From assembly GCA_028291615.1 (NCBI GenBank), contig JAQGHM010000033.1:1-42303 (forward strand): a stretch of DNA of 42,303 bases, in the 5' to 3' direction. This DNA is from Phycisphaerales bacterium (GTDB taxonomy: Bacteria; Planctomycetota; Phycisphaerae; Tepidisphaerales; Tepidisphaeraceae). The notes beneath the pieces were generated by a model. That model saw nothing but the letters and a program-made list of their open reading frames with translations. It did no database searches and had not been told where the DNA came from. Below are positions 3,390 through 37,810 of this stretch, piece by piece. Made by a program: the position numbers and the translations under genes. Numbering within the stretch: the first letter of the stretch is position 1; the number at the start of each line of letters is the position of its first letter.

Positions 3390-3392
3390 ACG

Positions 3393-5360: not shown

Positions 5361-5375
5361 GGGGGTGTTATCGGC

Positions 5376-6313: not shown

Positions 6314-6317
6314 CGAG

Positions 6318-6389: not shown

Positions 6390-6395
6390 ACCCGA

Positions 6396-6647: not shown

Positions 6648-6717
6648 CGCGCGATAAGTTAATCAGGAGACGGGATCCGTTCAAGTTGCTGAGGCAGACC
6701 CGGCCCCCGCACCAAGG

Positions 6718-7506: not shown

Positions 7507-7577
7507 TCGTGTCGTCCTTCGCGCGGGCTGCAAACGCAAATGGCGGGCAGCGAAAATTCTGTACGTCCCATTCCGCT

Positions 7578-8105: not shown

Positions 8106-8261
8106 CGCGACAAGTATACGTCACCCGGGCTAGAACTCTGACATCGCATCCCAGAAAATGGAGATGGAGAAGAATATCGGGACACTCTGTGTTGAGCTCG
8201 TGCCCAATCTTCGTGAGATCGCCAGTGCCGCATCCAGATCACCGTTTCGGGATTTTCCAGC

Positions 8262-8495: not shown

Positions 8496-8497
8496 AG

Positions 8498-10826
<2,329 letters not shown>

Positions 10827-10961
10827 GGTTGAGGCTCCTGTGAGTGAGATCGCGACGAGCGACGTTGCTAACGCCGTGCCGCGCGCCATGGCCGAGCCGT
10901 TTTCCCAGCCGCCTCCGCGCTGGAGTGGCACGGGCCGCACCCTCTCCAGTATCATCCGCCC

Positions 10962-11765: not shown

Positions 11766-11787
11766 CCGCACGGTGATCGACCGCGCA

Positions 11788-20614: not shown

Positions 20615-22108
20615 ATGATCAAGAACGTCCTAATCCTCGGCGCCGGTAGCGCCGGCCTCATCGCCGCCATCTCCATCAAGCGGAAAATCCCGCAACTCGC
20701 CGTCCACGTCGTGCGCAGCCCCGACATCGGCGTCATCGGCGTCGGCGAGGGCACCACGCCCAACTTCCCCAAGCACCTCTTCGATTACCTCGGCATCAGC
20801 CGCAAGCACTTTTACGCGATGGCCCAGCCGACCTGGAAGCTCGGCATCCGCTTCATCTGGGGCCCGCGCGATCACTTCGAATATGGCTTCGCCCGCCAGC
20901 TCGATTCCCACTGGTCCGACCTCCCGCGCCCCAATGGTTATTACTGCGACGAAGACTTCACTTGCAGCGACCTCACCACCGCCCTCATGGCCCACAACAA
21001 GGTCTTCGCGCGCCAGCCCGACGGCGGCGGGCCGGACATCCAGCCATGGCACGGCTTTCACATCGAAAACAAAAAACTCGTCGAGGTGCTCGAGGTCGTC
21101 GCCCGCACCGTCGGCGTCGAGTTCACCGATGCCCGCGTCAGCGGCGCCAAACGCGGGCCGCAGGGAATCTCCTCGATCATCCTCGACGACGGCCGCGAGC
21201 TCACCGCCGACTTCTTCATCGACTCCAGCGGCTTCCGCAGCGAATTGCTCGGCCGCGCACTCGAAGAGCCCTACATCAGCTTCGACAAATCCCTCTTCTG
21301 CGACCGCGCCGTCGTCGGCGGCTGGGAACGCACGGTCGAGCCCATCCTCCCGTACACGACCGCCGAAACCATGGACGCCGGCTGGGCCTGGCAGATCGAG
21401 CACGAGCATTTCATCAACCGCGGCTACGTCTTCTCATCACAGTTCACCTCCGACGACGACGCCCGCGCCGAGTTCACGCGCAAGAACCCCAAAGCGGCCA
21501 AAGACGGCCGCGTCGTCAAGTTCCGCTCCGGCCGCTACCGTCGCGGCTGGGTGGACAACGTCATCGGCATCGGCAACGCCTGCGGCTTCGTCGAGCCGCT
21601 CGAAGCCACCTCCCTCATGGTCGTCTGCAGCCAGTGCGAGACGTTCATCGATTTCCTCCTCCACACCGGCCTCACCCCCACGCCGACCATGCGCAACCTG
21701 TACAACGACATGACCGCCGGCGTGTGGGACGAGATCCGCGATTTCCTCGCGCTCCACTACAAGATCAACACCCGCCTCGACACCCCCTTCTGGCGTCATT
21801 GCCGCGAAAACACTGACGTCTCCGGCATCGCCCACCTCCTCGAGTTCTACAACGAGAACGGGCCCACCGGTTTCGCCCGCCACCTGCTCCGCCCGACCGG
21901 CAGCAACTTCGGCATCGAAGGCTTCCTCGTCATGCTCGTCGGCAACCGCGTCCCCTACCAGGGCCGCCACCAAGCCAGCGACGCCGAACGGAAAACCTGG
22001 AATAGCTACCGCGCTCAATTCGCCGCGCAAGCGCAGGCCGGCATGGACATCCGCGAAGCCCTCGCCTACATCCGCCAACCCGGCTGGCGCTGGTTCGCCG
22101 AATCCTGA
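20615..22108 (+). CDS. Flavin-dependent tryptophan halogenase-like protein
   Basis: A 497-residue FAD-dependent halogenase-family protein. The FAD-binding motif is LILGAGSAGLIAA (7-19), followed by IGVGEGTTPNFPKHLF, matching the family GVGEAT.P segment. The catalytic lysine equivalent to Lys79 of PrnA/RebH is K75 in PTWKLGIRF. The NACGFVEPLEATSL loop keeps the glutamate of the EPLE(S) motif. The usual WxWxIP signature reads WAWQIE (257-262), with Glu in place of Pro. Family enzymes use FADH2, O2 and chloride or bromide to halogenate indoles or phenols; no flavin reductase is nearby. GGAAG precedes the ATG. Substrate and even halogenation are uncertain. Confidence 0.85.
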   Translation: MIKNVLILGAGSAGLIAAISIKRKIPQLAVHVVRSPDIGVIGVGEGTTPNFPKHLFDYLGISRKHFYAMAQPTWKLGIRFIWGPRDHFEYGFARQLDSHWSDLPRPNGYYCDEDFTCSDLTTALMAHNKVFARQPDGGGPDIQPWHGFHIENKKLVEVLEVVARTVGVEFTDARVSGAKRGPQGISSIILDDGRELTADFFIDSSGFRSELLGRALEEPYISFDKSLFCDRAVVGGWERTVEPILPYTTAETMDAGWAWQIEHEHFINRGYVFSSQFTSDDDARAEFTRKNPKAAKDGRVVKFRSGRYRRGWVDNVIGIGNACGFVEPLEATSLMVVCSQCETFIDFLLHTGLTPTPTMRNLYNDMTAGVWDEIRDFLALHYKINTRLDTPFWRHCRENTDVSGIAHLLEFYNENGPTGFARHLLRPTGSNFGIEGFLVMLVGNRVPYQGRHQASDAERKTWNSYRAQFAAQAQAGMDIREALAYIRQPGWRWFAES

Positions 22109-23979: not shown

Positions 23980-24011
23980 CAACCGCCCATGCCCGCGTTA
24001 TCTTCCTCCCC

Positions 24012-25040
24012 ATGAACCTCAACCTCCTCAAACAACTCTCCGAAGCCCCCGGCGTCCCCGGCCGCGAAGAACGCGTCCGCGCCATCCTCGAAAAAGAAAC
24101 CAAGGGCCTCTTCGACGAAACCTCCACCGACAACCTCGGCTCCCTCATCGCCATCAAAAAGTCCAAGGCCCCCGGCGCGAAGAAGGTTCTCCTCGCCTGT
24201 CACATCGATGAGATCGGCTTCTACGTCAAGCACATCGACGACAAAGGCTTCCTCCGCGTGCACAACGCCGGCGGTTTCGACACCAAAAACCTCCAGGCCC
24301 GCCGCGTCCTCGTCCAATCGTCAGGCGGCGAAGACCTCATCGGCCTCCTCAACCCCAGCGGCCGCCCCATCCACATCGCCAAGGAAGAGGACAAGAAAAA
24401 GATCCCCGAGATCGCCGACTTCAGCATCGACCTCTGCCTCGCCCCCGAGGAGGTTCGCAAAAAAGTCCGCATCGGCGACCCGGTCACCCTCATCCAAGAG
24501 TTCAGCGAGATCGGCCAGTGCGTCAGCGGCAAATGCCTCGACAACCGCGTCGCCGCCTTCGTCGCCATTGAAGCGCTCCGCAAAGTCCAGAACCTGAAAT
24601 ACGACGTGGTCCTAGCCGCGACGGTTCAGGAAGAAGTCGGCTGCCGCGGCGCCGGCCCCGCCGCCTTCGCCCACGAGCCCGACATCGCCATCGCCATCGA
24701 CACCACGCTGGCCGTCGATACGCCCGGCGTTCCAGAAGACGAGCGCGTTACCAGGCAAGGCGACGGCGTCGCCCTCACGATCATGGACAGCATGACGATC
24801 AGCAACCGCCCCCTCATCGACGCCTTCGAAGCCGTCGCCAAAAAACGCGACATCCCCTGCCAGCTCAGCATCCTCCCCCGAGGCGGCACCGACGCCGGCC
24901 CCATGCAACGCGCCCGCGGCGGCTACAAGACGATGACCCTCTCCATCCCCACCCGCTACATCCACACCGTCACCGAGTGCATCCACAAACGCGACCTGCA
25001 AAGCGCCATCGACCTCCTGGCGGCGTGGCTGGAGACGTGA
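24012..25040 (+). CDS. M42-family aminopeptidase (glutamyl aminopeptidase/FrvX-like)
   Basis: A 342-residue metallo-aminopeptidase with an ATG at 24012. Metal and catalytic residues are visible: H64 and D66 (ACHIDEIGF), D177 (CLDNRVAAF), E207-E208 (VQEEVGCRG), D230 (AIDTTLAVDTPG) and H318 (RYIHTVTE). The insert between 70 and 165 is the dodecamer-forming domain (beta-sandwich) of M42 enzymes. It trims N-terminal residues from peptides in the cytoplasm, typically as a tetrahedral dodecamer. A 33-bp dispersed repeat and a GGGG-CAAGT-CCCC stem followed by TTTAAA lie after the stop. It converges on the AsmA-like gene. Confidence 0.93.
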   Translation: MNLNLLKQLSEAPGVPGREERVRAILEKETKGLFDETSTDNLGSLIAIKKSKAPGAKKVLLACHIDEIGFYVKHIDDKGFLRVHNAGGFDTKNLQARRVLVQSSGGEDLIGLLNPSGRPIHIAKEEDKKKIPEIADFSIDLCLAPEEVRKKVRIGDPVTLIQEFSEIGQCVSGKCLDNRVAAFVAIEALRKVQNLKYDVVLAATVQEEVGCRGAGPAAFAHEPDIAIAIDTTLAVDTPGVPEDERVTRQGDGVALTIMDSMTISNRPLIDAFEAVAKKRDIPCQLSILPRGGTDAGPMQRARGGYKTMTLSIPTRYIHTVTECIHKRDLQSAIDLLAAWLET

Positions 25041-25092
25041 GCTTAACGCTAAGAATCGAAACAAGCGGCTACTGAATCAAAGCGCGCTCCGG

Positions 25093-25125
25093 CCACGCCG
25101 GGTTCGGAGCTTCAGGCGACGACCC
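25093..25125. repeat. 33-bp dispersed repeat, copy 2
   Basis: Identical to 17553-17585. In this copy GCTCCG lies just before the repeat and CGGAGC inside it, so a 6-bp hairpin can form. It is between the convergent peptidase and AsmA-like genes. Confidence 0.75.
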
Positions 25126-25134
25126 GGATTCGTC

Positions 25135-25150
25135 GGGGCAAGTCCCCTTT
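25135..25150 (+). terminator. Short GGGG/CCCC stem after the M42 peptidase gene
   Basis: GGGG, a 5-nt CAAGT loop, then CCCC followed by TTTAAA, about 95 bp past the peptidase stop and before the stop of the convergent AsmA-like gene. It is a weak terminator candidate. Confidence 0.3.
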
Positions 25151-25153
25151 AAA

Positions 25154-27820
25154 CTACCTCCGCCGCCCCTTCGCCCCCCCATCGTCCGCATCATCCCCCA
25201 GCCGCTCCCCCCTCATCATCTTCCCAAACAGCTTCGCCACCCCCTCCGTCAACACCGGCGACGGCACCGTATCGATCTTCGGCTCGCGGGTCGAACCCGT
25301 CACGCGAAACTCATACAACAACGTCTTCGTAGCCGTGTTGACCATCTTCTGCAGCCCCCCCAGCACCTCCCCCGCCACGTCGCTGACGATCGGAATGCGC
25401 GTCCGCTTCATCTGATCCTTCCAGTCCGCCAACGGCGCAGCCACCACGCGCAGGTTCAGCCGTCCATCAAACATCACGCTCCCCGACCCCTGCACCCCCA
25501 GCACCGGCGCGCTCAGCGCCGCGTCAGTCAACTCCACCTTCTGGTCATGAACGTGGAAGTGACCCGCCGCCTGACCCACCGTCAACGCATTGCCCGCGAC
25601 ATTGGCCCCCTTTGCTATCTCTTCGAGCGTCGGGAGCGACCAAAAATCCCCGTTCAACACCTCAAACCGCCCCGTCGCCTGAAAGTTATCCGCCCCCGTG
25701 TGATTCTCATCTGGCCCCGTCCCCTCCACCCGCGCATTCGCGTTCCCTTTCCCCGACAACCGCGTCGGCTTCTTCCCCTGCTGAACGGAAACCAGCTCCC
25801 CCAGGCTCTTCAGATCGACATCGCGCAGCCAAACCTGCCCCTGATAGGCAACCTCCTTCCCCCTACCCGGCGTCAATTGCCCCTCCGCCGTCCCCGTCCC
25901 GCCCAGCGAATTCACCTCAAGCCGCTTGATATCCACCAGCCGCGGCGTGCTCACGATCTCCGCCTTCACGTTGGTCAGCGGAATCCGCTTCTTACCGATC
26001 GTCGCCCCCCCATCGTCGCTGCGAATATCAAAGTGAAAATCCGGCTTAGTCCCCGGCGGCATCCCGTTCCGCCGCGCAAAAAATCCCAGCGCATACCAAG
26101 TCCCCGATGGCCGCAGCTCTCGCGCGACAAACTCAAACGGACGCCCGTAATCCTCCACCGTCCCCGTCAATTGCACCGACCCACTGATCTCCTCCAGCCG
26201 AAACTCCCGATCAATGTGCTCCAGCGGAATCCGAGCGCCGGTCACGAAGAACTTATCCCCGTGATACTCCCCTTCCGCATTCTCCACCGTGATCACATCC
26301 CGATTCGCACGCACCGTCCCTGACACCCCCGTAAACGACGCCGGCCAATTCATCGGCCGCGCCACCAGCTCGCGCGGATACGCAACCACCTGGTATTCCA
26401 CCTGGTCCATGAACCGCGTCCCCGGCGCAGGCCGAATCGGCCCCGCAGCCGTCGCCGTCAACCGCATTTTCCCCGACAGGTCCATCTTCGCCAGCGCCTG
26501 CTCGATCCGCGTAGGTAGCCCCGACCGATCCTTCCCCAGCTCAAGCTGGCAGAGCAAATTCTTCACCCGCCACTGATCACTCTCCGGATCGATCGTCGCC
26601 TCCCCCTTCTCAATGTGCAGCAGCGTATCGCGCGTCCCGATCTCCAACAGATCGAGATTAACCGTAGTAGGCGGTTGCTTGCTCCGCGTCGACTTTTGCG
26701 CCGCCACCGCGCGCGTCGTCCCCTGCGTCGCCGCAACCGACGTATCCGACATCACCACCGGCCGGCTAACCTCCGTGGCCGCGACTTGCTTGTCTTCACT
26801 CGCCAGCCGCAGCTTCAGCGCCAGTCGATCAATCCGCCCCGCCCCATCCGACAACCGCGCACTCCCCGAAGGCAGCTCCAGCACCGCCTTGTATTGACTC
26901 GCTCCCGGATCCTTAAGCGGCACCGTCGCGCTCCCGCTTAACGACATCGACCCCGCCACCTCATACCGCTGCAGGATCTCCTGCCAGGACGGCGGCAACT
27001 GCTCCTGCCGCTTATCCTTGTCCACCTTCACGCCGAACACGAACCGCTCAACGTCCAGCCGCCCACTGTCCACATCCAACTTCCCCCGAGCATTCGCCAC
27101 CGCGAGAGGCGCATTCCGCGCCGATAGGTCATAAGAATAAAGCGCCCCCGACGTCGGCTCAGTATCCATCTCCACCGTCAGATTCTTCCAGATCAACGGC
27201 GGCCGATTCGAACGCTCCCGATGATCCTCGAACAGAATTTGCCCGTCGTGAATCTCAAACCGCCGCAGCCGAAAATAATCCGATGGCTTCTCCTTCTTCT
27301 GCTTCCCTGCCGCCGCCGCGGCGATCTGATCCTCCGCCGAAACCGGCTTCACCAAATTACGCGTCCCCAGCAACCCATTCTCCGTCAAGATGAAATGCAC
27401 CGAAGGCTGCTTGATGATGATCCGCTTAATCACCAGCGGCCCATCCCCCCATGGAAGCTGCGCAAGATGAAGATCCAATTCCTTCACGCGCAGCAGGTCG
27501 ATCTGCTGCCCATGCGCGTCCCACGCCACCAGCGCCGCATTGTGAGCCGTCAGCCCATAAGGAAAGTGATAAGACAACCGCTCCATCTTCAGTTCAGCAT
27601 TCAGATGCTTCGACACCATCTGCTGAAGCCGCTCGCGCAAAAACGGCGCGATGATCTTCGGCGCAACAAAATAAACCAGCAAGAACAGCAGCGCCACCGT
27701 CCCCAGCGCCCAATACTTCTTCCGCCCGCGCCCCAGCGGCCCCGTCTTCATCGCAATGGCGGCTGATCGATTCACGGCGTGGCTCACAGGCGATTCCTCA
27801 AAACTATGGCGTAACGGCAT
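25154..27820 (-). CDS. AsmA-like inner-membrane-anchored periplasmic protein
   Basis: An 888-residue protein with an N-terminal membrane anchor (KKYWALGTVALLFLLVYFVAP), preceded by a basic GRGRKK segment. The long periplasmic part has many beta-strand repeats seen in the AsmA/TamB superfamily, for example LKMERLSYHFPYGLTAHNA, IKRIIIKQPSVHFIL and RLRRFEIHDGQILFED, with a C-terminal AsmA-type unit (GQAAGHFHVHDQKVEL, GVQGSGSVMFDGRL). Such proteins are believed to bridge the envelope and move lipids or help outer-membrane assembly. The first ATG at 27820 gives an N-terminal tail with no signal role; an internal ATG at 27751 (MKTGPLGRGRKK) is an equally good start. It is divergent from the exported protein at 28003. 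Confidence 0.85.
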   Translation of the reverse strand: MPLRHSFEESPVSHAVNRSAAIAMKTGPLGRGRKKYWALGTVALLFLLVYFVAPKIIAPFLRERLQQMVSKHLNAELKMERLSYHFPYGLTAHNAALVAWDAHGQQIDLLRVKELDLHLAQLPWGDGPLVIKRIIIKQPSVHFILTENGLLGTRNLVKPVSAEDQIAAAAAGKQKKEKPSDYFRLRRFEIHDGQILFEDHRERSNRPPLIWKNLTVEMDTEPTSGALYSYDLSARNAPLAVANARGKLDVDSGRLDVERFVFGVKVDKDKRQEQLPPSWQEILQRYEVAGSMSLSGSATVPLKDPGASQYKAVLELPSGSARLSDGAGRIDRLALKLRLASEDKQVAATEVSRPVVMSDTSVAATQGTTRAVAAQKSTRSKQPPTTVNLDLLEIGTRDTLLHIEKGEATIDPESDQWRVKNLLCQLELGKDRSGLPTRIEQALAKMDLSGKMRLTATAAGPIRPAPGTRFMDQVEYQVVAYPRELVARPMNWPASFTGVSGTVRANRDVITVENAEGEYHGDKFFVTGARIPLEHIDREFRLEEISGSVQLTGTVEDYGRPFEFVARELRPSGTWYALGFFARRNGMPPGTKPDFHFDIRSDDGGATIGKKRIPLTNVKAEIVSTPRLVDIKRLEVNSLGGTGTAEGQLTPGRGKEVAYQGQVWLRDVDLKSLGELVSVQQGKKPTRLSGKGNANARVEGTGPDENHTGADNFQATGRFEVLNGDFWSLPTLEEIAKGANVAGNALTVGQAAGHFHVHDQKVELTDAALSAPVLGVQGSGSVMFDGRLNLRVVAAPLADWKDQMKRTRIPIVSDVAGEVLGGLQKMVNTATKTLLYEFRVTGSTREPKIDTVPSPVLTEGVAKLFGKMMRGERLGDDADDGGAKGRRR

Positions 27821-27888
27821 GGTAACAATAGGCTTCGCCCATCACTTTGGCCTTGCCTGCATATCCCCCGAAGCTTAGGTTCTATTTC

Positions 27889-27912
27889 CTGATGCACCGC
27901 GCATCAGATTTT
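27889..27912 (+). terminator. CTGATGC/GCATCAG hairpin with T-rich tail
   Basis: A perfect 7-bp stem, CTGATGC (27889-27895) and GCATCAG (27901-27907), with a 5-nt loop and an ATTTTC tail. It sits between two divergent genes, about 90 bp upstream of the exported protein start, so it may be a leader attenuator rather than a gene-end terminator. Confidence 0.4.
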
Positions 27913-28002
27913 CAGGTGGCGTTGTATTTGCCCGCCTGCTAGATTCATTCGTCCGCAGTCCCAACGCGCCGCCTGCTCCGCCTGTGATCAGGGAGGATAT
28001 TC

Positions 28003-28740
28003 ATGCGTGTCTCGCTCGCCGTTAAATGTCTCACCGCCGCGCTCTGCTTCGCCCTGCCCGCCGCCGCTGCCATCACGATTAAAGACCGCACGATCAACCA
28101 GCCGTTAGTCCTCGACCAGAACGAGGACTACTACCTCCACAAAGTCTATATCTCCGGCATCACCGACCTCGCCGCCCTCACGCTCACCGGCAAAATCAAT
28201 TCCGTCAACCTCTCGCACTGCATCTTCTCCAACATCTGGGCCGGCCCCAACGGTAAGGCCACCGCCACCGAAGCCCAAGGTGCCATCGTCGGCTCCTTCG
28301 TCGCCACCGACACCGCCTTCGAGGACGCCCAGCACCAACTCCTCTGCCTGCGCGAAGGCGCCTTCGGCACCGTCACCTTCCAGCGGTGCAAGTTCCGCAC
28401 CACCGACTCGTTCCTCAAAAAAATCTACGCCAACGACCCCTGGCGCTCCACCCCCCCCACCACAGAGTTCGCCAACATCGAGCGCCTCGAACTCCTCGAC
28501 AACGAGTACGTCAACACCGTCCTCATCGTCCACCCCTCAGTCAAAGTCGTCATCTTCCGCGGCGACATCTCCAACCTCCGCCTCGAAAGCCCCAGCACCC
28601 ACGTCATCCGCCTCGAAAAAGACCAGGACCCCTCAATGATCAACATGGACGGCACCGCCGTCGCCCAGACGCCAGCAGAAGCAGACGCCCAGCCCGTCAA
28701 TTCATCCGAGGAAGACGCTCAGACTTCCCCAACCCCATAA
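28003..28740 (+). CDS. Exported protein, possible beta-helix, unknown
   Basis: A 245-residue protein with a signal peptide (MRVSLAVKCLTAALCFALPAA) and a strong GGGAGG ribosome binding site 8 bp before the ATG. The mature part has short strand-turn repeats with Asn/Ser (GKINSVNLSHCIFSNIW, TDTAFEDAQHQLLCL, FGTVTFQRCKFRTTD) that resemble a pectate-lyase-like right-handed beta-helix. The tail is acidic and low-complexity (NSSEEDAQTSPTP). Two of the cysteines (in SHCIF and QRCKF) could form a disulfide. No enzymatic motif was recognised. It converges on the SDR gene 73 bp away. Confidence 0.65.
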   Translation: MRVSLAVKCLTAALCFALPAAAAITIKDRTINQPLVLDQNEDYYLHKVYISGITDLAALTLTGKINSVNLSHCIFSNIWAGPNGKATATEAQGAIVGSFVATDTAFEDAQHQLLCLREGAFGTVTFQRCKFRTTDSFLKKIYANDPWRSTPPTTEFANIERLELLDNEYVNTVLIVHPSVKVVIFRGDISNLRLESPSTHVIRLEKDQDPSMINMDGTAVAQTPAEADAQPVNSSEEDAQTSPTP

Positions 28741-28813
28741 AAAATCGCTTGACTTGGAACAAGCTCAGTCGAGTCGCGGTTTCGCACCGTGAAAAACTGA
28801 ACCGTCACGCAAC

Positions 28814-29608
28814 TTACAACATCCCCTTCAGCACCCCACCCTCCGCCCGTACCGCCGACCCATTAATCCCCGACGCCACCGCCCCGCACAAAAACGCCAC
28901 CACCGCCGCCACCTCCTCGGAAGTCTCGAACCGTTTGATGAGCGAGCTGGGGCGCACCGATTTGAAGAAGTCTGCCTCGACCTCTTTCTCAGTCACTCCG
29001 CGACTGTGCGCCATGTCCGCGACAAACTGCTCCACCCCCTCCGATTTCGTCGGCCCCACCAGCACCGAATTCACCGTCACCCCCGTCCCCGCAGTCAATT
29101 CCGCCATCCCCCGCGCCAAAGACACCTGCGCCGACTTCGTAACCCCATAGTGAATCATCTCGGTCGGAATCTGCACCCCCGACTCGCTCGAAATGAAAAT
29201 CACCCGCCCCCAGCCGCGCTTGAGCATCGGCGGAAAATAATGCCGCGACAACCGCACCCCGCTGATCAAGTTCACCTCGAGGATGTGCATCCAATCCTCG
29301 TCCGACAATTGCTCGAACGGCTTGACCTCGTAAATGCCCAGGTTGTTGATCAGCAGGTCAACGTCGGGCATCGCCCCGATCACCCGCCGCGCCCCCTCCG
29401 CCGTCCCCAGATCCGCAACGATCCCCTCAACCACGCCGCCAGCCGCATCGCGCTTCACCTGCGCCACAGCCTCATCCACCCGCGCCGCCGTCCGCCCGTT
29501 CACCGTCACCCGCGCCCCCTCCCGCGCCAGCGCCGTAGCAATCGCCAGCCCAATCCCCGCCGTCGATCCCGTCACCAGCGCCCGCTTCCCCGAAATCTGT
29601 AAGTCCAT
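28814..29608 (-). CDS. Short-chain dehydrogenase/reductase
   Basis: A 264-residue SDR. The NAD(P)-binding loop is TGSTAGIG (13-20), followed by NNLGIYE (NNAG equivalent, 88-94). The catalytic residues are S141, Y154 and K158 (FISSESG...HYGVTKSA). Arg39 after the second beta strand (NGRT) favours NADPH. It ends GINGSAVRAEGGVLKGML, where the family usually has G..(I/L)RVDGG. It reduces a ketone or oxidises an alcohol in the cytoplasm; substrate is unknown. GGAG lies about 12 bp before the ATG. It is divergent from the pseudopilin gene. Confidence 0.92.
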   Translation of the reverse strand: MDLQISGKRALVTGSTAGIGLAIATALAREGARVTVNGRTAARVDEAVAQVKRDAAGGVVEGIVADLGTAEGARRVIGAMPDVDLLINNLGIYEVKPFEQLSDEDWMHILEVNLISGVRLSRHYFPPMLKRGWGRVIFISSESGVQIPTEMIHYGVTKSAQVSLARGMAELTAGTGVTVNSVLVGPTKSEGVEQFVADMAHSRGVTEKEVEADFFKSVRPSSLIKRFETSEEVAAVVAFLCGAVASGINGSAVRAEGGVLKGML

Positions 29609-29664
29609 CGTGAAAACTCCTTCGCCGACATTCTAAATGCCCGACCGCGATTGTCGAACGTCCC

Positions 29665-29725
29665 ACCCCGTTTAGCCGGCTCGCTTGCGGGCCGTGTCCA
29701 AGTGCGCCGTTCCCCAATCACGCAC
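29665..29725. repeat. 60-bp structured repeat, upstream copy
   Basis: An imperfect repeat, starting ACCCCGTTTAGCCGGCTCGC, that also occurs at 30774-30834 with roughly four-fifths of bases shared. Its core CGGCTCGC-TT-GCGGGCCG folds into an 8-bp stem (one T-G wobble). It ends with TTCCCCAATCAC, identical in both copies. It lies before the pseudopilin gene. Confidence 0.65.
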
Positions 29726-29831
29726 TCATATTCCAGACCTGCAACATTTCCCCCTGGCATCCCCAAATAAGTCTTGCCCTCCCCACCCCCCGCCGCGCAT
29801 ACTCATCACTCACACGTCTCAAGGTCGCCCC

Positions 29832-30704
29832 ATGCCACTCCACTTCCGAGCCCGCCCCAAAGGCTTCACCCTCGTCGAACTCCTCGTAGTCATCGGCATC
29901 ATCGCCCTCCTCATCTCCATCCTCCTCCCCTCCCTCAGCAGGGCCCGCGAGCAATCCCGCACCATCGCCTGTCTCTCCAACCTCCGCCAGATCGGCCAGG
30001 CCGCCGCCATGTACGCCGCCCACAATCACGGCTTCACCGTCCCCGGCTACGCCGACTACAGCGCCACCACCAGCAACGGCGTCCCCCTCGACGCCGAAAA
30101 TTACGCCACCGTCCTGGTCAACACCAGGTGCATCACCGCAACCTCCGTCATCAATCTGACCGATCATCCCAGCAACCAATCCTCCCCGTTCTTCTGTCCC
30201 TCCGGCCTCGACGATCAGGTCTCGATCCACCTCCAGCCCGGCGTCTCCACCCCCTTCCCGCAAGACCGCAAGGCAGCCCTCGCCCAGGAACCCTGGCGCG
30301 TAAAATCGATCAGCACCGGCGTCATCATCGACAGTTGGTACGGCATAAACGCCGTGCGCGACGGCTTCACCGCCCACCCCCACCCCTGCCGCCGCCTCCC
30401 CGACGACGCCAACAAGACCGACCACACCCTCACCCGCCTAAGCCAGATCAAGCGCAACGCCGACACCGTCTTCCTCTTCGACGGCACCTTCCTCAACCTC
30501 TACTACGAAGCCGACCGCATCGCCGCCCGCCACAACAACCGCACCACCACCAACCTCCTCTTCTTCGACGGCCACGCCGCCAACGTCCCCACCGCCAGCC
30601 TCCCCGGCGCCCTGGGCCCCAACGCCGGCGGCAGCAGCCCCTTCAACAACCTGACCACCCTACAAAAATACCCCGACTTCCGGTGGCGCATGGACCAACC
30701 ATAA
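29832..30704 (+). CDS. Type II secretion pseudopilin-like protein
   Basis: A 290-residue protein. The start at 29832 has AAGG about 8 bp upstream and gives a 10-residue basic leader ending in KG, then the pilin signature [21 protein letters not shown] prepilin peptidase would cut before Phe and N-methylate it. The Ser/Arg-rich [20 protein letters not shown] that follows is the usual planctomycete continuation. The C-terminal part has an [17 protein letters not shown] segment, related to the H-x(n)-DG motif of planctomycete pilin-like families. It is probably in the inner membrane or a pilus-like fibre. Copies of a structured repeat flank the gene on both sides. Confidence 0.9.
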
Positions 30705-30727
30705 CAGTGCGGCAGCTTCCCCGGTGG

Positions 30728-30760
30728 GGCGGACATTCTTGTCTGCCTGTCTTTCGTCTT
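30728..30760 (+). terminator. Terminator-like hairpin after the pseudopilin gene
   Basis: GGCGGACA (30728-30735) and TGTCTGCC (30740-30747) pair over 8 bp with one wobble and a 4-nt TTCT loop, followed by TGTCTTTCGTCTT. It lies 24 bp past the stop. Confidence 0.6.
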
Positions 30761-30773
30761 GCCTTCGCTATGT

Positions 30774-30834
30774 ACCCCTTTTAGCGGCTCCGCTTGCGGA
30801 GCGCGTCCAACAGCACGATTCCCCAATCACCCAC
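30774..30834. repeat. 60-bp structured repeat, downstream copy
   Basis: Second copy of the repeat at 29665-29725. The core GCTCCGC-TT-GCGGAGC is a perfect 7-bp stem. Several differences from the other copy still leave pairing possible, as would be expected of a structure under selection. Confidence 0.65.
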
Positions 30835-31124
30835 GCCAACTACAGACATCGACCGACCGCATCCGCCTTCGCATCCGCCAAAACTGCATCCTCCTGAACA
30901 TACGCAAAACCACATCAACCACGCCGGGGCAGAGCGCCGGGAGCTACGCGACCACAGCGCCGCCCCGGATTCCCCACCCCCGGCGCGGTCCCGTCAGCGA
31001 TCCTGTTCTCCAGAAAACACCGAGCACCAGATTTCAAAGCGAAAAAAATTAACCCCCAAGTTCTCCCCCGTCTACCGCCAGCCCGCAGTGCCGCGTCCTC
31101 AACTCCCGCATAAACCAATGGAAA

Positions 31125-31174
31125 GGAGAGCGGAGGCGAGAACCTTGGGCCCTGATGGTTCTCGCCTCCACTCC
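31125..31174. promoter_or_regulatory. Long inverted repeat before the PHP-ATPase gene
   Basis: GGAGGCGAGAACC (31132-31144) and GGTTCTCGCCTCC (31157-31169) are a perfect 13-bp pair with a 12-nt loop; GGAG (31125) and CTCC (31171) extend it after a small internal loop. No T-run follows. It could be an operator, an attenuator stem or a mobile-element scar. Confidence 0.6.
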
Positions 31175-31255
31175 CCTGCGTTTGTCAGAGACGTTTCACA
31201 GCTTGCGTACTATCTCGGAAACCTTACCGTTAGGGTGGGCAAGCACCTGTTCGCT

Positions 31256-31267
31256 AATTCGCGAATT
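31256..31267. promoter_or_regulatory. 12-bp palindrome AATTCGCGAATT
   Basis: A perfect palindrome ending 6 bp before the GGAGGG ribosome binding site of the PHP-ATPase gene. It would lie in the leader or promoter and could be a repressor site. Confidence 0.35.
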
Positions 31268-31285
31268 CAAATCGGAGGGCGACAA

Positions 31286-34200
31286 ATGGGAAATAATCGC
31301 GATCTATTTCGGAAAATGTCTACTGCGCGGGCACACTTTTACCCGTGTGATTTCCACGTCCACAGCCCGGGTTCCGGCGATGTACGACTCGGACAGAGAT
31401 TTGAGCGACTCTCGAGAGCCGAGCAGACACTGCTTCAAGGCATCCCGCCCGGTCTGGCGGACGACGCGCGGGCGTACGAGCGGGCGGCACTTCTTGCCTA
31501 CCCGCCGTCAGACTTTTACGGCCGTCTACTTGGGCGACGAGACGAAGTGGCGACGTCGTTGGGCCTCACATCGGGCGATGATTGGGCGTTCATCGCAATC
31601 ACTGACCACAACGTCTGCGAATATGCCGAGCAATTGTCGGGATATGCATGGGAACGGCGAGCGGAAAGCCGCCTAATTATTTTCCCGGGGATTGAGCTTG
31701 ACGTATCCTTCCCTGTGGACGGGCTTACAGATAGGGTGAAGGCGCATCTCCTCGTAATATTCGCGCCCTGCACAACAGCATCGGACATTCGCATCGCCCT
31801 CTCCACAGCATCCGGAACGGTCTGGAATGAGGGAGAGCACCTTAGTTTGCCAGCGCTGGCAGACTTCGTCCGGAAGGTTCGAATTCATACGAAATATCCG
31901 GCGATTTCCATTGCCGCACACATCGGGTCGAGCAAGGGCGTACAGAATGAGATGCGCAAGGGCATCCTTTCTCATTTAGACGTTGCGATCAGCCGAATGA
32001 AGGGCGAGTTGAGCAACGCCGACGTTATCGATAGAGGCGAATTGACGACACGCCTTGCGCAGCTGAAAGCGATGAAGGGAGACGACAACGCAATCGCACT
32101 GGAGGTATTGCGGTTGATCGGCGACTGTGGATTTGATGCGCTTCACGTCGGAGCGCGTGAGGACGAAGTGCATTATCGGCGTCTTCATCGGTTTTCACCT
32201 GCCATGGGGCGAGCTGCGCCTCTGGTCTGTTCGGACGCGCATTGCGTTTCTGAAGTGTTCACATGTACCGGGGGCGTACCGCACCTGAAGCTACCCGCGG
32301 TTTCTGCGGGCTTAACGCCCTCCCAGCTATTCTTTCAAGTCAGAGAACACGCCATGAGGTTCGGCGAAACCAGGCTGAGCTACGCCCCGCCCGGACGCGT
32401 CTCGAATTGGATTAGCGGGATAGAGATAGTTCGAGAGACGAAGGACGCTGCCGAATTCTGGCCCTTCGAAAAGTCAGCAACCGCCGGTGAAGCCGCGGGC
32501 GTAAGGTTCGTGCTACCGTTTTCGCGGAACCTGACCTGCCTTATCGGAGGTCGGGGCTCGGGCAAAAGCGCCTTGTTGGAGGCCGTGGCGTTTACCTCCC
32601 GCGCTTCCGACTTCGTGATGCCGAGTAATCGGTTAAAAGATCCCCCCGATTGGTACAAGCGCGCGAAAGCCACTCTTCAAGGCTGTCGCGTGACAGTTTG
32701 TTGGCAGTTCATGGGTGCCGGTGATCTTGACCACCTGCCGAAGCGGGCTCTTTTTGCCACTCGTTTCTTCGATGCTCAAGGGCAACACAGCGGCGTTGTG
32801 TACAGCGACTTGGAAAATAACGAACTCACCGGCAATCAGGTCCCCGTGAACGAGGTTCAGTTCTTCCGGGTTCATGACATCGAAACGGCGGCACATCCTG
32901 AAAAACTGCGTAATTTGTTCGACGAGATTTGCGGCCCAGATATCCGAGCTTTAGATGCGGAGATAGACCTAAAGACACAATCGCTCCGACGGCAGCGCGA
33001 GGGACTGCTGAAGATCGCGACAATGATCCAGAAACTTACTTATGCCGGGTCACCGCTGCTTGATCTCGCCAACAGAGCCTCACAGTTTCGAGCACTGAAT
33101 AGCGAAGAAGTGCGGAACGATTACGAACAGATCGATCTGGCCGCGTCCGCCGAATCCATGGCACAGCAACTCGAGGTCCGGTGGGAACAGGCGCTCGAGG
33201 AAGCAGATGTGACCGGAGGTGCTGCCGCAATTGCTGCCTTCTTCTCGGAGGCAAAGGATCGTCTACGCAACGGTGACGCGGAAGGCGTACCGCGCGTCGC
33301 CGAATTGGATGAGATTTTCTTCGTCGTAGGCGACGGTGAGGCCTCCCGTGACTCTGCCGAGGTTCTCATTGCCGAGGAATTCAAAGGTCTCGCGTCTGAG
33401 ATCGCGGCACTGGGCAGTGACCTCACCTACGCAATATCGAGAATCGCGGAACGCCACAAGAACGGACGTGAACTGCTCGCGAAGAAGGGTTTGCCCGTTG
33501 CGGGAACTGCACGAGAGACGAAAAAAAAGGCTTACGAGGAGTCCCTGACCGCACTGACCGAATACCGAGAGGCTGCAACGAAATGGGACGACGGCATCTC
33601 CGCAAGGCTCGTCCTGAGAACCGAACTCCTCGATCTGTGCAAACGACGATCGGAACTGCGCACACGAACAGCCCGTCGCATCACCGATCAACTTGCCCGT
33701 GACCTTGATGCCCAGATATTAGTGATCCAAGCAGATGCGCAGGCCGACGCGGACAATAGCGCCTTCACGAAGTGGCTACATGACAATCTGGCCCCGTCTG
33801 GCAACGTTTGGAAGTTCCGCGAACAGCGCATCGATGCCATGGTTCGCCGCGGCTTGTCACCAGATCGCTTACGCGATCTCCTACTTTCTAGGAACGGGGT
33901 AACCGCCTCCGCCCTCGTCGTCTCGGCGAGTGGTGCCGCTCAAGGAGAAGTGGATCTGACAACTGCCTCACGCGTCTTTGAAGGTTCAGTCGCACGACAC
34001 CGCCTCCCACCAGAGATCTCGCCTCAAAAGGATACGGCTTCTGAAACTGAGGCCGTTCCCGAAGAAGTGCTGGCAGGGTTCTGGACCTTCGACAGCGAGA
34101 GTGACGGAACGCTTCGAGTAGCGAAGGTGCTCATTCTTGATGAGACGGTTTCGAATGACGTGCCCGTAATCAAGCTCAACGACCGACCGGTCGAAGCTGG

Positions 34201-34615
34201 TAGTAGCCTTCGCCCGTTGGAAACCTTATCGCCCGGCCAGCGTTGCAGTGCGATTCTGCCGATCCTGCTACTCAACGGGAGTTGCCCGCTGGTGATCGAC
34301 CAGCCCGAGGATAATCTCGATAATCGCTTAATTCGCCAAGTCATTGTTAACATCCTCGCTAGCATCAAGCTGAGGCGACAGGTCATTGTGGCGACACATA
34401 ATCCTAACTTGCCTGTGCTCGGCGACGTGGAGCGGGCGACAGTCCTGCGAGCAGTGCGTGACACGGAGTGCGAGATTCGTGCCGCAGGTGATTTAGGGGA
34501 GAGTGATGTTGTGCGCTATATTACTGACATCATGGAGGGCGGCCGCGAGGCGTTCCAGTATCGACAAACAATATATCAAGCTCATTGGACTCAATCAGTC
34601 GCAAACGCCACCTAA
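31286..34615 (+). CDS. PHP phosphoesterase-SMC/RecF-like ABC ATPase fusion (TrlF-like)
   Basis: A 1109-residue fusion. The ATG at 31286 has GGAGGG 6 bp upstream. Residues about 17-320 are a PHP domain with all metal motifs: CDFHVHSPGSGD (H24, H26), ITDHN (D107, H108), FPGIELD (E137), AAHIGSS (H212) and CSDAH (D317, H319). The ATPase has Walker A GGRGSGKS (421-428), a long helical, partly coiled-coil middle (about 550-790), signature LSPGQR (981-986), Walker B VIDQPEDNLDN (D1005, with Gln at 1006 and Glu at 1008) and the switch histidine H1038 (ATHNPN). PHP domains hydrolyse phosphodiesters or nucleotides; RecF/SMC-type ATPases sense DNA or RNA ends. Similar fusions are annotated as TrlF-family ATPases and are considered defence candidates. 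No partner gene is adjacent. GC is visibly lower than in neighbouring genes. Confidence 0.88.
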   Translation: MGNNRDLFRKMSTARAHFYPCDFHVHSPGSGDVRLGQRFERLSRAEQTLLQGIPPGLADDARAYERAALLAYPPSDFYGRLLGRRDEVATSLGLTSGDDWAFIAITDHNVCEYAEQLSGYAWERRAESRLIIFPGIELDVSFPVDGLTDRVKAHLLVIFAPCTTASDIRIALSTASGTVWNEGEHLSLPALADFVRKVRIHTKYPAISIAAHIGSSKGVQNEMRKGILSHLDVAISRMKGELSNADVIDRGELTTRLAQLKAMKGDDNAIALEVLRLIGDCGFDALHVGAREDEVHYRRLHRFSPAMGRAAPLVCSDAHCVSEVFTCTGGVPHLKLPAVSAGLTPSQLFFQVREHAMRFGETRLSYAPPGRVSNWISGIEIVRETKDAAEFWPFEKSATAGEAAGVRFVLPFSRNLTCLIGGRGSGKSALLEAVAFTSRASDFVMPSNRLKDPPDWYKRAKATLQGCRVTVCWQFMGAGDLDHLPKRALFATRFFDAQGQHSGVVYSDLENNELTGNQVPVNEVQFFRVHDIETAAHPEKLRNLFDEICGPDIRALDAEIDLKTQSLRRQREGLLKIATMIQKLTYAGSPLLDLANRASQFRALNSEEVRNDYEQIDLAASAESMAQQLEVRWEQALEEADVTGGAAAIAAFFSEAKDRLRNGDAEGVPRVAELDEIFFVVGDGEASRDSAEVLIAEEFKGLASEIAALGSDLTYAISRIAERHKNGRELLAKKGLPVAGTARETKKKAYEESLTALTEYREAATKWDDGISARLVLRTELLDLCKRRSELRTRTARRITDQLARDLDAQILVIQADAQADADNSAFTKWLHDNLAPSGNVWKFREQRIDAMVRRGLSPDRLRDLLLSRNGVTASALVVSASGAAQGEVDLTTASRVFEGSVARHRLPPEISPQKDTASETEAVPEEVLAGFWTFDSESDGTLRVAKVLILDETVSNDVPVIKLNDRPVEAGSSLRPLETLSPGQRCSAILPILLLNGSCPLVIDQPEDNLDNRLIRQVIVNILASIKLRRQVIVATHNPNLPVLGDVERATVLRAVRDTECEIRAAGDLGESDVVRYITDIMEGGREAFQYRQTIYQAHWTQSVANAT

Positions 34616-34946
34616 AGCTCATTTGGGACTGATCCAGATGACGAGCAAACTCGCCCCCGTTAGTTTCTGATTGCATGCAACGCATCAGGCATCCCACTAC
34701 CCTGCCGCGCGCACCCCCCCTCCCACCCAAAACCAAAAACAATTTCCCCCAAAACCCCGCGAAAAACCCACATTCCACCCCCTATGCTGCGCCAACGAGG
34801 TCCCCGGCGCGCACCACCGCCAGTAACAGTGAGGCCCAACATGCGCACCGACAACCCGACCATCCCCCCTCGCGCCACGACCACCCCGCGCGCCAACACC
34901 TGCCATTCCCTGCCAAACCCCGCCAACGCGCCATCACTCGCAAAAT

Positions 34947-35262
34947 GCGCAAAACGAACCCACCGCCCCCGGTGCCATCTTCACGCGAGCCACAACATCG
35001 CCCGCGCCTGCCAACCCCCGCCCCAGCGCGCGCGAGCATGCCTTCGCGCTCCAATCACAAAACGCGCAGAACGAACCCACCAACGTTCAACCGCCGCCCC
35101 CGCGCCAAACGGGACCACGCCGCGCCACAATCCCGCGCGCCCGCGCAAAAGGAAGCCACCCCGCCGCCTCCCTCCACCTCCTTGTCTTCCTGGCTACTTG
35201 GCTACGTGGCTGCTTGGCGTTTCTCCCCACCCCCACGCGCGCCGGCGCAAAACGAAGCCAAC
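34947..35262 (+). repeat. Degenerate 18-bp repeat family GCGCAAAACGAACCCACC
   Basis: Related units at 34947-34964 (GCGCAAAACGAACCCACC), 35064-35081 (GCGCAGAACGAACCCACC), 35102-35119 (GCGCCAAACGGGACCACG), 35143-35160 (GCGCAAAAGGAAGCCACC) and 35245-35262 (GCGCAAAACGAAGCCAAC). Spacing is irregular (117, 38, 41 and 102 bp), and all are in the same orientation. Confidence 0.6.
35191..35214 (+). repeat. 8-bp tandem repeat, three units
   Basis: TGGCTACT, TGGCTACG and TGGCTGCT follow one another directly, then TGGC. It is a short, slightly diverged tandem array in non-coding DNA. Confidence 0.7.
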
Positions 35263-35371
35263 TCGATGCGACCAAATACGACCAAATGCGACATATACGC
35301 AAAACGCGAATTTTCACCCCCCCATCTTACCACCCCAACCCCCGCCTCCCCTGCCCTCAGTGCCTCCGTCG

Positions 35372-35400
35372 TTCAACGCTTCCCATTCGCCTTGTACAAT
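35372..35400 (+). promoter_or_regulatory. Possible sigma-70-type promoter for the SMP-30-like gene
   Basis: TTCAAC (35372-35377), 17 bp, then TACAAT (35395-35400), giving a leader of about 36 nt before the ATG at 35443. The -10 match is good, the -35 weak. Confidence 0.35.
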
Positions 35401-35442
35401 CCCGCGCGAACTCATCTCCCAACTCTTCGAAAGGAACTACGC

Positions 35443-36375
35443 ATGAGACTCCTCCCCTTCGCCCTCCCACTCTTAACCCTCACCTTCACCCTCTTCGCCG
35501 CCGAGCCCTTCGAAATCAAAGACAAACAAGAGTTCGCCCGCATCGTCCCCGCTAACGCCAAAATCGAAAAACTCGCCACCGACATGAAGTTCACCGAAGG
35601 CCCCGTCTGGTCCGACCAGGACGGCGGCTTCCTCCTCTTCTCCGACATCCCCTCGCATCACATCAATCGCTGGGACGCCAAAACCGGCCTCGCCGTCTAC
35701 CGCGAACAATCCAACAACACCAACGGCAACTCCCGCGACGCAGAAGGCCGCCTCATCTCCTGCGAGCATCAGGCCCGCCGCGTCACGCGCACGGAAAAGG
35801 ACGGCACGACGATCACCGTCCTCGCCGACAAGTTCGAAGGCAAACGCTTCAACTCCCCCAATGACGTCGTCGTGAAGTCCGACGGAACCATCTGGTTCAC
35901 CGACCCGCCCTACGGCCTCCCCAAAGGTGAGCAAAAGGAGCTCGACAAAAACTACGTCTTCCGCCTCGACCCCAAAACCAACCAGATCAAACCCGTCATC
36001 ACCGACTGCGACATGCCCAACGGCCTCGCCTTCTCCCCCGACGAGAAAAAGCTCTACGTCGCCGACTCCGGCAAGCCAAAACACATCCGCGTCTTCAACA
36101 TCGCCGCCGACGGCGCAGTCACCGGCGGCGAAGTCTTCTGCAAGATCGACAATGGCGCCCCCGACGGCATCCGCGTTGACCCCGCCGGCCGTCTCTTCTC
36201 CAGCGCAAAGGACGGCGTCCAGATCTTCTCCGACAAAGGAGACCTGATCGGCAAGATCCTCCTCCCCGAATCCTGCGCCAACCTATGTTTCGGAGGAAAG
36301 GATAAGAACGAACTCTACATGACCGCCAGCAAATCCCTCTACCGCATCAAGCTCAACACGACCAGCCAAAGGTGA
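35443..36375 (+). CDS. Exported SMP-30/gluconolactonase-like beta-propeller protein
   Basis: A 310-residue protein with AAAGGA about 8 bp before the ATG and a signal peptide (MRLLPFALPLLTLTFTLFA, cleaved about AAEP). It has the SMP-30/gluconolactonase family motifs: KFTEGPVWSDQDGG with the metal-binding Glu, RFNSPNDVVVKSDG with Asn/Asp, DMPNGLAFSPDEKKLYVADS, and GAPDGIRVDPAGRL. It is a six-bladed propeller that would use a divalent metal to open a sugar lactone or hydrolyse a similar ester, here in the periplasm. Length is normal. It converges on the anti-sigma gene 6 bp away. Codon use is the C-rich type of the chromosome, unlike the PHP-ATPase gene upstream. Confidence 0.92.
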   Translation: MRLLPFALPLLTLTFTLFAAEPFEIKDKQEFARIVPANAKIEKLATDMKFTEGPVWSDQDGGFLLFSDIPSHHINRWDAKTGLAVYREQSNNTNGNSRDAEGRLISCEHQARRVTRTEKDGTTITVLADKFEGKRFNSPNDVVVKSDGTIWFTDPPYGLPKGEQKELDKNYVFRLDPKTNQIKPVITDCDMPNGLAFSPDEKKLYVADSGKPKHIRVFNIAADGAVTGGEVFCKIDNGAPDGIRVDPAGRLFSSAKDGVQIFSDKGDLIGKILLPESCANLCFGGKDKNELYMTASKSLYRIKLNTTSQR

Positions 36376-36381
36376 AACGTG

Positions 36382-37212
36382 TCAGATCCGAACCTTCACG
36401 CCCATCTCCCCCGCAGCCGAGGAAAGCTGCCCGTCCGTCTCCCCCACCAGGTAATAAACAACCCCCGCCCCGCGCCAGACGATCATCTCCGTCCCGTCCC
36501 CGCCATCCTTCGCCAGGTAAACTTTCCCCTCTTCCAACGCCAACTGCCCCCGGTCCAGTTGCACGAACAAACTGACAGCCCCGCCCACCCCGCTCGCCGG
36601 CTTGTACAACAAGTGCGCCGTCTTCCCCCCCGGCACAGCACAAGGCCCACAGCCAGCGAACTGATACCCAAGCTTCGAAAGATCCGGACACTTCGCATCA
36701 TGCCCCAAATACCCGCGCAGCGAATCCGGCAACTCCGCAAGCGTTCGCGGAAACTGCGGCGCAAAGTGAGCCGCATGCTTCGCACAATTGATATGGACAT
36801 GCGAAGTCGAAGCGACCCACGCCACCGGCACCACCGCGCTCCCCCGAACCACCTCCGCCCCCCGATTCACGCGCGACCAGACCGCGAACGATCCAATCCC
36901 AATGACAAGCACCGCCGCCGCCGCAAGCCGAAACCCAATCCGCCATCGCGCCGCCCCCGCATCTCGCGAAGGCTTCTCGACATCCGCCGCCCGTCCCGCC
37001 ATTTCTTCCACGCGCCGCCTCAGTTCCGCCGGCACCGCCATCCCCTGCACAGCCCGCCGCCCCGCCTCGCGCAACTTGTTGTGCAATGCCACCTTACTGG
37101 CCGCCGCCGGGTCCACCGCCACATGCGCGCGAACCCGCTCCGCCGCGGCGGCATCCAGTTCGCCGTCCGCGTACGCCATCAACTCAAGTTCGCCCGGAAC
37201 TTCGCTCATCAT
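36382..37212 (-). CDS. Membrane-anchored anti-sigma factor-like protein
   Basis: A 276-residue protein starting MMSEVPGELELMAYADGELD, the usual opening of anti-sigma domains (ELMAYADGELD..A...V..H). There is no HxxxCxxC zinc-binding motif, so it is not a ZAS type of the classic form. One membrane helix is at about 93-112 (GFRLAAAAVLVIGIGSFAVW). The C-terminal part, probably periplasmic, has four cysteines (C143, C175, C188, C191), including a GCGPC pair, and several His residues near C143. It should hold the sigma factor encoded 13 bp upstream and release it on an envelope signal. Its stop lies 6 bp from the convergent SMP-30-like gene. Confidence 0.8.
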   Translation of the reverse strand: MMSEVPGELELMAYADGELDAAAAERVRAHVAVDPAAASKVALHNKLREAGRRAVQGMAVPAELRRRVEEMAGRAADVEKPSRDAGAARWRIGFRLAAAAVLVIGIGSFAVWSRVNRGAEVVRGSAVVPVAWVASTSHVHINCAKHAAHFAPQFPRTLAELPDSLRGYLGHDAKCPDLSKLGYQFAGCGPCAVPGGKTAHLLYKPASGVGGAVSLFVQLDRGQLALEEGKVYLAKDGGDGTEMIVWRGAGVVYYLVGETDGQLSSAAGEMGVKVRI

Positions 37213-37225
37213 CTCCTAAACTCTC

Positions 37226-37810
37226 TCATCGGCCGCTTTCATCCGCCCCAGCGGATCTTTTGCCGTCATCGTGACCCAACTCACCGGCAAGGTCCGCTAA
37301 TTGTTCCAGCAACATCGTCCGAGCCCGGAAAAGCCGGCTCATCACCGTCCCAATCGGCATCTCCAGCACCCCCGCAATTTCCCGGTATTTCAGCCCCTCG
37401 ATCGCCGAAAGCAGGAACACCGTTCGATACGTCAGCGGGAGCTCTTCGATCGCGCTCTTTAATCGTTCGTCCACCTGCTCCCAATCCAAATCCGCCAGCG
37501 CCTGCCCGGCGAGATCCGCGTCCTCCTCCCGCCGCTCCGCAAACTCCTCAGCCATCTCCGACGCCACCGGTTCCAACCGCGCCCGCTTTATTCGTGTCAA
37601 AAACGCGTTGTGCAAGATCCGCAGCAGCCACGGCCGCACCCCCATCTCCCCCAGCTTAAACGAGTCTTCAGCCTTGAAGGCGCGGAGGAAAGTTTCCTGC
37701 ACCAGATCGTCAGCATCCGCCCCGTTGGACGTCCAATGAAGCGCCATGCGATAAACCGCCGGAAGTTCGGCAATTGCCAAGTCGCGGAAGTTTTTGCGGT
37801 CGATGGCCAT
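37226..37810 (-). CDS. ECF-family RNA polymerase sigma factor
   Basis: A 194-residue sigma-70 family protein. Region 2 is AELPAVYRMALHWTSNGADA, then DDLVQETFLRAFKA, then VRPWLLRILHNAFLTRIKR. Region 4 is ELPLTYRTVFLLSAIEGLKY, then REIAGVLEMPIGTVMSRLFR with the helix-turn-helix for the -35 box. It lacks region 3, as in all ECF sigmas. It directs RNA polymerase to a regulon that probably includes its own gene. The anti-sigma gene follows by 13 bp, and the 854-residue membrane protein precedes it by 31 bp, so the three are likely one transcript. Confidence 0.94.
   Translation of the reverse strand: MAIDRKNFRDLAIAELPAVYRMALHWTSNGADADDLVQETFLRAFKAEDSFKLGEMGVRPWLLRILHNAFLTRIKRARLEPVASEMAEEFAERREEDADLAGQALADLDWEQVDERLKSAIEELPLTYRTVFLLSAIEGLKYREIAGVLEMPIGTVMSRLFRARTMLLEQLADLAGELGHDDGKRSAGADESGR

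What the first reader, a model, noticed from the sequence alone, without database searches (positions are those of the whole stretch)
31286..34615. Stand-alone PHP-SMC ATPase fusion in lower-GC DNA, candidate defence gene
Seen: all PHP metal motifs (H24, H26, D107/H108, E137, H212, D317/H319) and a full ABC ATPase set (GGRGSGKS, LSPGQR, DQPED, THNPN) in one 1109-residue frame. The gene has more A/T-ending codons than its neighbours and is flanked by non-coding repeat DNA. Known: fusions of this sort (TrlF-like) occur in accessory islands and are suspected nucleic-acid-sensing effectors. Inference: it senses an invader nucleic acid through the ATPase and cleaves a nucleotide or polynucleotide with the PHP domain, with no partner gene needed. 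A system with only one gene, in Planctomycetota, would be novel.
Basis: partly seen in the sequence, partly recalled or inferred. Interest (0 to 1): 0.75.

Follow-up and report, generated by a model that had tools for sequence, protein, structure and literature searches.

The report
Foreign one-gene PHP-ATPase defence insert
A planctomycete has picked up, as a single foreign gene, a large protein that joins a metal-dependent nuclease domain to a Rad50/SMC-like ATPase; it is a divergent cousin of the known bacterial anti-phage protein Ppl, and its closest relatives sit in anti-phage islands or ride inside viruses, so it is very probably a defence nuclease of a known kind.

Summary
In detail: window 31286-34615 (+) encodes 1109 aa with a complete PHP metal site and a complete Rad50/SMC-type ATPase. 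Structure prediction supports both folds. The gene is compositionally foreign: its GC3 is 0.605 against a mean of 0.793 in neighbours (z -3.4), and base composition alone marks an insert of about 31.11-34.69 kb that holds only this gene. Genome-wide dispersed repeats lie on both sides.

It is a divergent member of the TrlF/Ppl superfamily: TrlF model 270 bits against a cut-off of 350, Ppl 108 against 1000. A single-gene PHP-ATPase defence is therefore not new; E. coli Ppl is one, a 3'-5' ssDNA exonuclease.

What is new is a well-supported seven-member clade with telling neighbourhoods. These are a BREX plus type III R-M island (Desulfobacteraceae, 44% identity), a 4-nt overlap with hmaB in an Hma island, the last gene of a tRNA-Ala-integrated filamentous prophage in another planctomycete, a phage contig, and three solitary copies including this one. 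It is absent from 25 same-family genomes and found in 4 of 397 class genomes.

Best reading: a horizontally transferred Ppl-like defence nuclease whose ATPase senses infection and controls a PHP nuclease. No activity has been tested.

The parts
31286..34615 (+). PHP-SMC/Rad50-like ATPase gene, 1109 aa, divergent TrlF/Ppl superfamily
31286..32401 (+). PHP domain (residues 1-372), AlphaFold pLDDT 82; nearest solved folds are the PHP domains of bacterial DNA polymerase III alpha and RNase AM
31349..31363 (+). PHP motif I, D22-F-H24-V-H26
31601..31609 (+). PHP motif II, T106-D107-H108
31694..31696 (+). PHP metal ligand E137
31919..31921 (+). PHP metal ligand H212
32234..32242 (+). PHP motif D317-A-H319
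32546..32569 (+). Walker A, GGRGSGKS, residues 421-428
32906..34195 (+). mainly helical, coiled-coil-like middle part between the two halves of the ATPase head, residues 541-970
   Evidence: predicted helices 551-807
34226..34243 (+). ABC signature LSPGQR, residues 981-986
34283..34312 (+). Walker B region CPLVIDQPED, residues 1000-1009
34394..34408 (+). switch histidine region THNPN, residues 1037-1041
31110..34689 (.). segment of foreign base composition found by change-point search without using the gene model; contains only this gene
31124..31177 (.). strong hairpin (21-nt arms, z -5.0) at the left edge of the insert, 109 nt before the start codon; found nowhere else in the genome
30913..30981 (.). 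dispersed repeat, about 40 copies genome-wide
34684..35400 (.). composite of dispersed repeats, about 60 matches genome-wide

Best explanation
The gene is a horizontally acquired, probably self-sufficient anti-phage effector that works like E. coli Ppl. Two protomers would pair their Rad50/SMC-type heads (Walker A at 421-428, signature at 981-986), and the helical middle part would engage nucleic acid, probably DNA ends or single-stranded DNA exposed during infection. Nucleotide-bound heads would hold the PHP site inactive. When the nucleotide pool falls or DNA ends are bound, the metal-loaded PHP site would degrade DNA from 3' ends and stop the phage. Shown here: the two domains, intact predicted active sites, foreign origin, and linkage of relatives to defence loci and viruses. 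Inferred: dimerisation, DNA binding, activation logic, substrate and the defence phenotype.
For: TrlF, Spaf_1101 and Ppl are the best NCBIfam matches and Ppl the best PADLOC match. The PHP profile finds solved PHP enzymes including endonuclease Q and RNase AM, and the PHP model matches the PHP domains of Pol III alpha and RNase AM. The ATPase model matches SMC, Rad50, MukB and Wadjet JetABC heads, and the family profile also finds AriA of PARIS and a retron ATPase. All PHP ligands are retained across the clade. Clade neighbourhoods: type III R-M plus BrxA/B/C, HmaA/B/C with a 4-nt overlap between the PHP-SMC gene and hmaB, last gene in an integrated filamentous prophage 12 nt before attR, phage contig. 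Patchy distribution and foreign composition. E. [quoted passage not shown]
Against: No activity data exist. None of the neighbouring genes scanned is a known defence gene. The protein falls below the curated cut-off for TrlF and far below that for Ppl, and its identity to Ppl-like relatives outside its clade is only about 20-22%, so Ppl's substrate and trigger may not carry over. PHP domains also act on phosphomonoesters and RNA.
Confidence: 0.6

Rival explanations
1. Defence effector whose PHP domain acts on nucleotides or RNA (for example tRNA or nucleotide phosphates) and not on DNA 3' ends; the ATPase is the infection sensor, as in PARIS or retron-Septu ATPases.
For: PHP homologues with solved structures include RNase AM and phosphoesterases. 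The family profile also matches AriA and a retron ATPase.
Against: The best-studied full-length relative, Ppl, is a DNA exonuclease (PMC12904381). The PHP profile also aligns nearly end to end with the DNA enzyme endonuclease Q.
Confidence: 0.2
2. A cargo or inter-element competition gene of phages and filamentous viruses, now fixed in the chromosome as a remnant of a lost element; it serves superinfection exclusion, not general host defence.
For: A clade member is the last gene of an integrated filamentous prophage, another lies in a phage contig, and the window copy is a compositionally foreign single-gene insert.
Against: No phage gene, integrase, tRNA or att-like repeat is left at the window site. 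Other members sit in host-type defence islands. Mechanistically this overlaps with the best explanation.
Confidence: 0.12
3. A DNA-repair or genome-maintenance nuclease of the host.
For: Rad50/SMC-like head.
Against: Absent from 25 same-family genomes, patchy in the class and phylum, foreign codon use, cross-phylum tree.
Confidence: 0.04
4. A decayed or non-functional passenger.
For: Solitary, no obvious promoter by consensus scan.
Against: 1109-codon intact frame with every catalytic motif kept.
Confidence: 0.04

Closest known systems
Ppl (NF042955 / PADLOC PDLC02208), E. coli single-gene anti-phage system
   Same: One polypeptide with N-terminal PHP and C-terminal SMC-like NTPase; homologous by profile (108 and 81 bits); intact PHP ligands.
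   Different: Far below the 1000-bit equivalog cut-off; about 200 aa longer than the 882-position Ppl model, with inserts in the PHP domain (block 28-104 is 77 residues against about 36, block 213-317 is 105 against about 54-64 in Ppl-like relatives); different clade.
TrlF family AAA-like ATPase (NF045780)
   Same: Same architecture over the full length; sister-group member L056 passes the TrlF cut-off (380 against 350).
   Different: Window protein 270.5 and P0002 300.6 bits, both below 350. The TrlF group with a BREX-linked member (L064, L068, L069, L076, L078) has lost PHP motif I (Q/N for H/H) and H319, while this clade keeps them.
Spaf_1101 family AAA-like ATPase (NF045781)
   Same: Shared C-terminal ATPase half.
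   Different: 144 bits against a cut-off of 475.
Rad50 / SMC / Wadjet JetABC / AriA (PARIS) ATPases
   Same: Head-domain fold and motifs.
   Different: From general knowledge: no fused PHP domain in those, and they act in multi-subunit complexes.

Membership tests
TrlF family (NF045780) | Score at or above the curated cut-off of 350 bits | tested here: not met
   270.5 bits
TrlF family (NF045780) | Full-length architecture: N-terminal PHP-like part, split ATPase head | tested here: met
TrlF family (NF045780) | Groups with cut-off-passing TrlF proteins in a tree | tested here: met
   six-member clade with L056 (380 bits), 100/97 support
Ppl (NF042955) | Score at or above the curated cut-off of 1000 bits | tested here: not met
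   108.3 bits
Ppl (NF042955) | Single gene sufficient for anti-phage activity | not testable with these tools
   solitary in the window; no assay possible
Ppl (NF042955) | NTP-inhibited 3'-5' ssDNA exonuclease | not testable with these tools
   mechanism known for E. coli Ppl only (PMC12904381)
PHP superfamily | Conserved His/Asp/Glu metal ligands on a PHP fold | tested here: met
Rad50/SMC-type ABC ATPase | Walker A, ABC signature, Walker B and switch His in one split head with intervening helices | tested here: met
Mobile, horizontally transferred defence gene | Patchy distribution, foreign composition, neighbours in defence islands or mobile elements | tested here: met
Multi-gene system component (Hma/BREX accessory) | Partner genes adjacent | tested here: not met
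   window neighbours are SDR, pilin-like, SMP-30 and sigma-factor genes, though relatives are adjacent to such partner genes

The most novel reading that the evidence does not exclude
This clade is a distinct defence enzyme type with its own trigger and substrate, set by the extra PHP inserts. It works alone in Planctomycetota and as an added nuclease arm of Hma and BREX-type modification systems elsewhere, and it is spread by filamentous phages that carry it as cargo.
Probability: 0.2. Interest if true: 0.65.

Novelty: new variant of a known kind. Interest (0 to 1): 0.42.

Why it matters
It extends the Ppl/TrlF type of PHP-ATPase defence to a divergent, cross-phylum clade. It supplies natural experiments that bear on whether the enzyme acts alone: the same gene is found solitary, overlapping hmaB in an Hma locus, in a BREX plus type III R-M island, and as the terminal cargo gene of a filamentous prophage. 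The contrast between this clade with an intact PHP site and a TrlF group with a degraded one makes the role of PHP catalysis testable.

Tried and rejected
Vertical inheritance was rejected. The empty-site test with flanking genes was uninformative: the SDR and SMP-30 orthologues lie on different contigs in relatives. The promoter scan gave nothing clearly above chance. No shared direct repeat of 9-12 nt frames the insert. The PDB sequence search with the single protein gave only weak SMC hits; profiles were needed. Sequence-pattern scans found one genome relative and no viral relative with the single sequence, and 26 viral loci with an alignment. Literature searches found no paper on TrlF as a defence protein in the held library. 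E. coli Ppl's own sequence was not obtained; Ppl-like proteins scoring 546-579 bits to the Ppl model stood in for it.

Full report
Observation. The frame at window 31286-34615 (+) is intact and encodes 1109 residues. Its start matches that of the closest relative, residue for residue in the conserved N-terminus (MGNNRDLF.. against MTSNRDLY..). In an alignment of seven clade members H24, H26, D107, H108, E137, H154, H212, D317, H319 and the ATPase residues G421, G424, G426, K427, S982, G984, Q985, D1005 and E1008 are invariant.

What the protein is. Pfam sees the ATPase only (AAA_21, SMC_N). NCBIfam ranks TrlF (270.5 bits, cut-off 350), Spaf_1101 (144, cut-off 475) and Ppl (108, cut-off 1000) on top, and PADLOC ranks Ppl first. 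A profile of the PHP part finds solved PHP enzymes: TM0559, RNase AM, endonuclease Q, YcdX. AlphaFold gives mean pLDDT 75 for the whole protein and 82 for the PHP part. Foldseek places the ATPase with SMC, Rad50, MukB and Wadjet heads (E down to 5e-12), and the PHP part with PHP domains of DNA polymerase III alpha, PolC and RNase AM (E 7e-5 to 5e-2, modest TM-scores). The middle part is mostly helix.

Foreign origin. GC3 is 0.605 against 0.793 +/- 0.055 for 20 other window genes (z -3.4, the lowest). From 24 to 37.8 kb the + strand has a negative GC skew (-0.15 to -0.44 in 500-base steps) whatever the gene strand, and only the gene breaks it. A composition change-point search that knew nothing of genes put the borders at 31110-31120 and 34679-34689 (log-likelihood gain 127). 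The insert is one gene with about 170 nt before it, beginning at a strong hairpin unique in the genome (31124-31177, z -5.0), and about 75 nt after. Beyond both borders lie dispersed repeats with about 40 and 60 genome-wide matches. No integrase, tRNA or flanking direct repeat is left, so how it arrived is unknown.

Distribution. None of 25 other same-family genomes has a match at E 1e-10. Among 397 genomes sampled from the class, three others match at E 1e-30. Among 392 genomes sampled from the phylum, all but its own gave only matches to the shared C-terminal ATPase half.

Clade and neighbourhoods. A maximum-likelihood tree of 27 full-length proteins gives a supported clade of seven (100/98), with planctomycete members and members from the class of the Desulfobacteraceae genome interleaved in both halves. 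(a) P0002, Desulfobacteraceae, 44%, the closest: it converges with a type III restriction gene 22 nt away and its methylase gene, followed by BrxA, BrxB and BrxC; upstream is a 2863-aa SNF2-helicase protein. (b) L129, another planctomycete of the class, 32%: last gene of a filamentous prophage with Rep_trans, Zot, secretin-like and integrase genes. The prophage is bounded by a 108-nt, 93% direct repeat that starts within tRNA-Ala; the gene ends 12 nt before the right repeat. (c) L056: between an HmaA-type helicase plus an AlbA_2 gene and an HmaB methylase, overlapping hmaB by 4 nt, then HmaC. Hma is a predicted defence system from PADLOC (PMC8565338). (d) L130 and L131, planctomycetes of the class: no defence partner beside them, near housekeeping genes (a Mg-chelatase-family gene, leucyl-tRNA synthetase), with GC3 (0.43, 0.36) below that of the neighbours. 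(e) L085: in a phage contig ahead of portal-like genes; the phage gene calls there are my reading of the translations. (f) The window copy: solitary; neighbours are AsmA-like, SDR, pilin-like, SMP-30 and ECF sigma-factor genes, and the neighbours scanned have no PADLOC match. In the cellular genomes examined the gene has lower GC3 than the neighbours measured.

Comparison with known systems. E. coli Ppl is described as a single-gene 3'-5' ssDNA exonuclease that is held inactive by NTPs on its PHP and NTPase domains and is released by nucleotide depletion together with DNA 3' ends (PMC12904381). The window protein shares the architecture and catalytic residues, so 'works like Ppl' is the best working model. 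It fails the curated cut-offs for both Ppl and TrlF, so I do not file it as a member of either equivalog; it is a divergent branch of the superfamily. Its PHP part carries extra segments (77 against about 36 residues between motifs I and II; 105 against about 54-64 before motif D317/H319), most marked in P0001, P0002 and L129. A TrlF group with a member beside BrxL on a Klebsiella plasmid has lost PHP motif I and H319, which suggests loss of catalysis there and shows that retention in this clade is not automatic.

Verdict. The claimed novelty of a single-gene PHP-ATPase defence is not supported, because Ppl is one. The new part is the divergent clade, its contexts and the clean one-gene insert.

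Noticed in passing
L129 (G1003) 1526-12622: A roughly 11-kb filamentous (inovirus-like) prophage integrated at tRNA-Ala in a planctomycete, with Rep_trans, Zot, secretin-like and tyrosine integrase genes; the PHP-SMC gene is its last gene, 12 nt before attR.
   Followed up: yes
window 24000-37800: Strong C-over-G excess on the + strand, independent of gene orientation, interrupted only by the PHP-SMC insert.
   Followed up: partly
window 30913-30981 and 34684-35400: Two families of dispersed non-coding repeats with about 40 and 60 matches across the genome; their nature was not determined.
   Followed up: partly
window 31124-31177: Unusually stable hairpin at the left edge of the insert, present once in the genome; could be a regulatory or element-end structure.
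   Followed up: partly
L064, L068, L069, L076, L078: TrlF group (one member beside brxL on a plasmid) in which PHP motif I reads Q/N in place of H/H and H319 is lost, probably a catalytically dead PHP domain.
   Followed up: partly
L003-L031 and L077: Many planctomycete genomes, and a Shinella plasmid, carry about 630-700-aa ATPases with the TrlF-type head but seemingly no PHP part; on the plasmid the next genes are an ATP-binding protein and a response regulator.
   Followed up: no
L002 24-8615: 2863-aa SNF2-helicase protein, reminiscent of phage/plasmid DarB-type proteins, upstream of the closest relative; suggests that island is on a mobile element.
   Followed up: no
window 20615-22108: Tryptophan halogenase-family gene (328 bits).
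   Followed up: no
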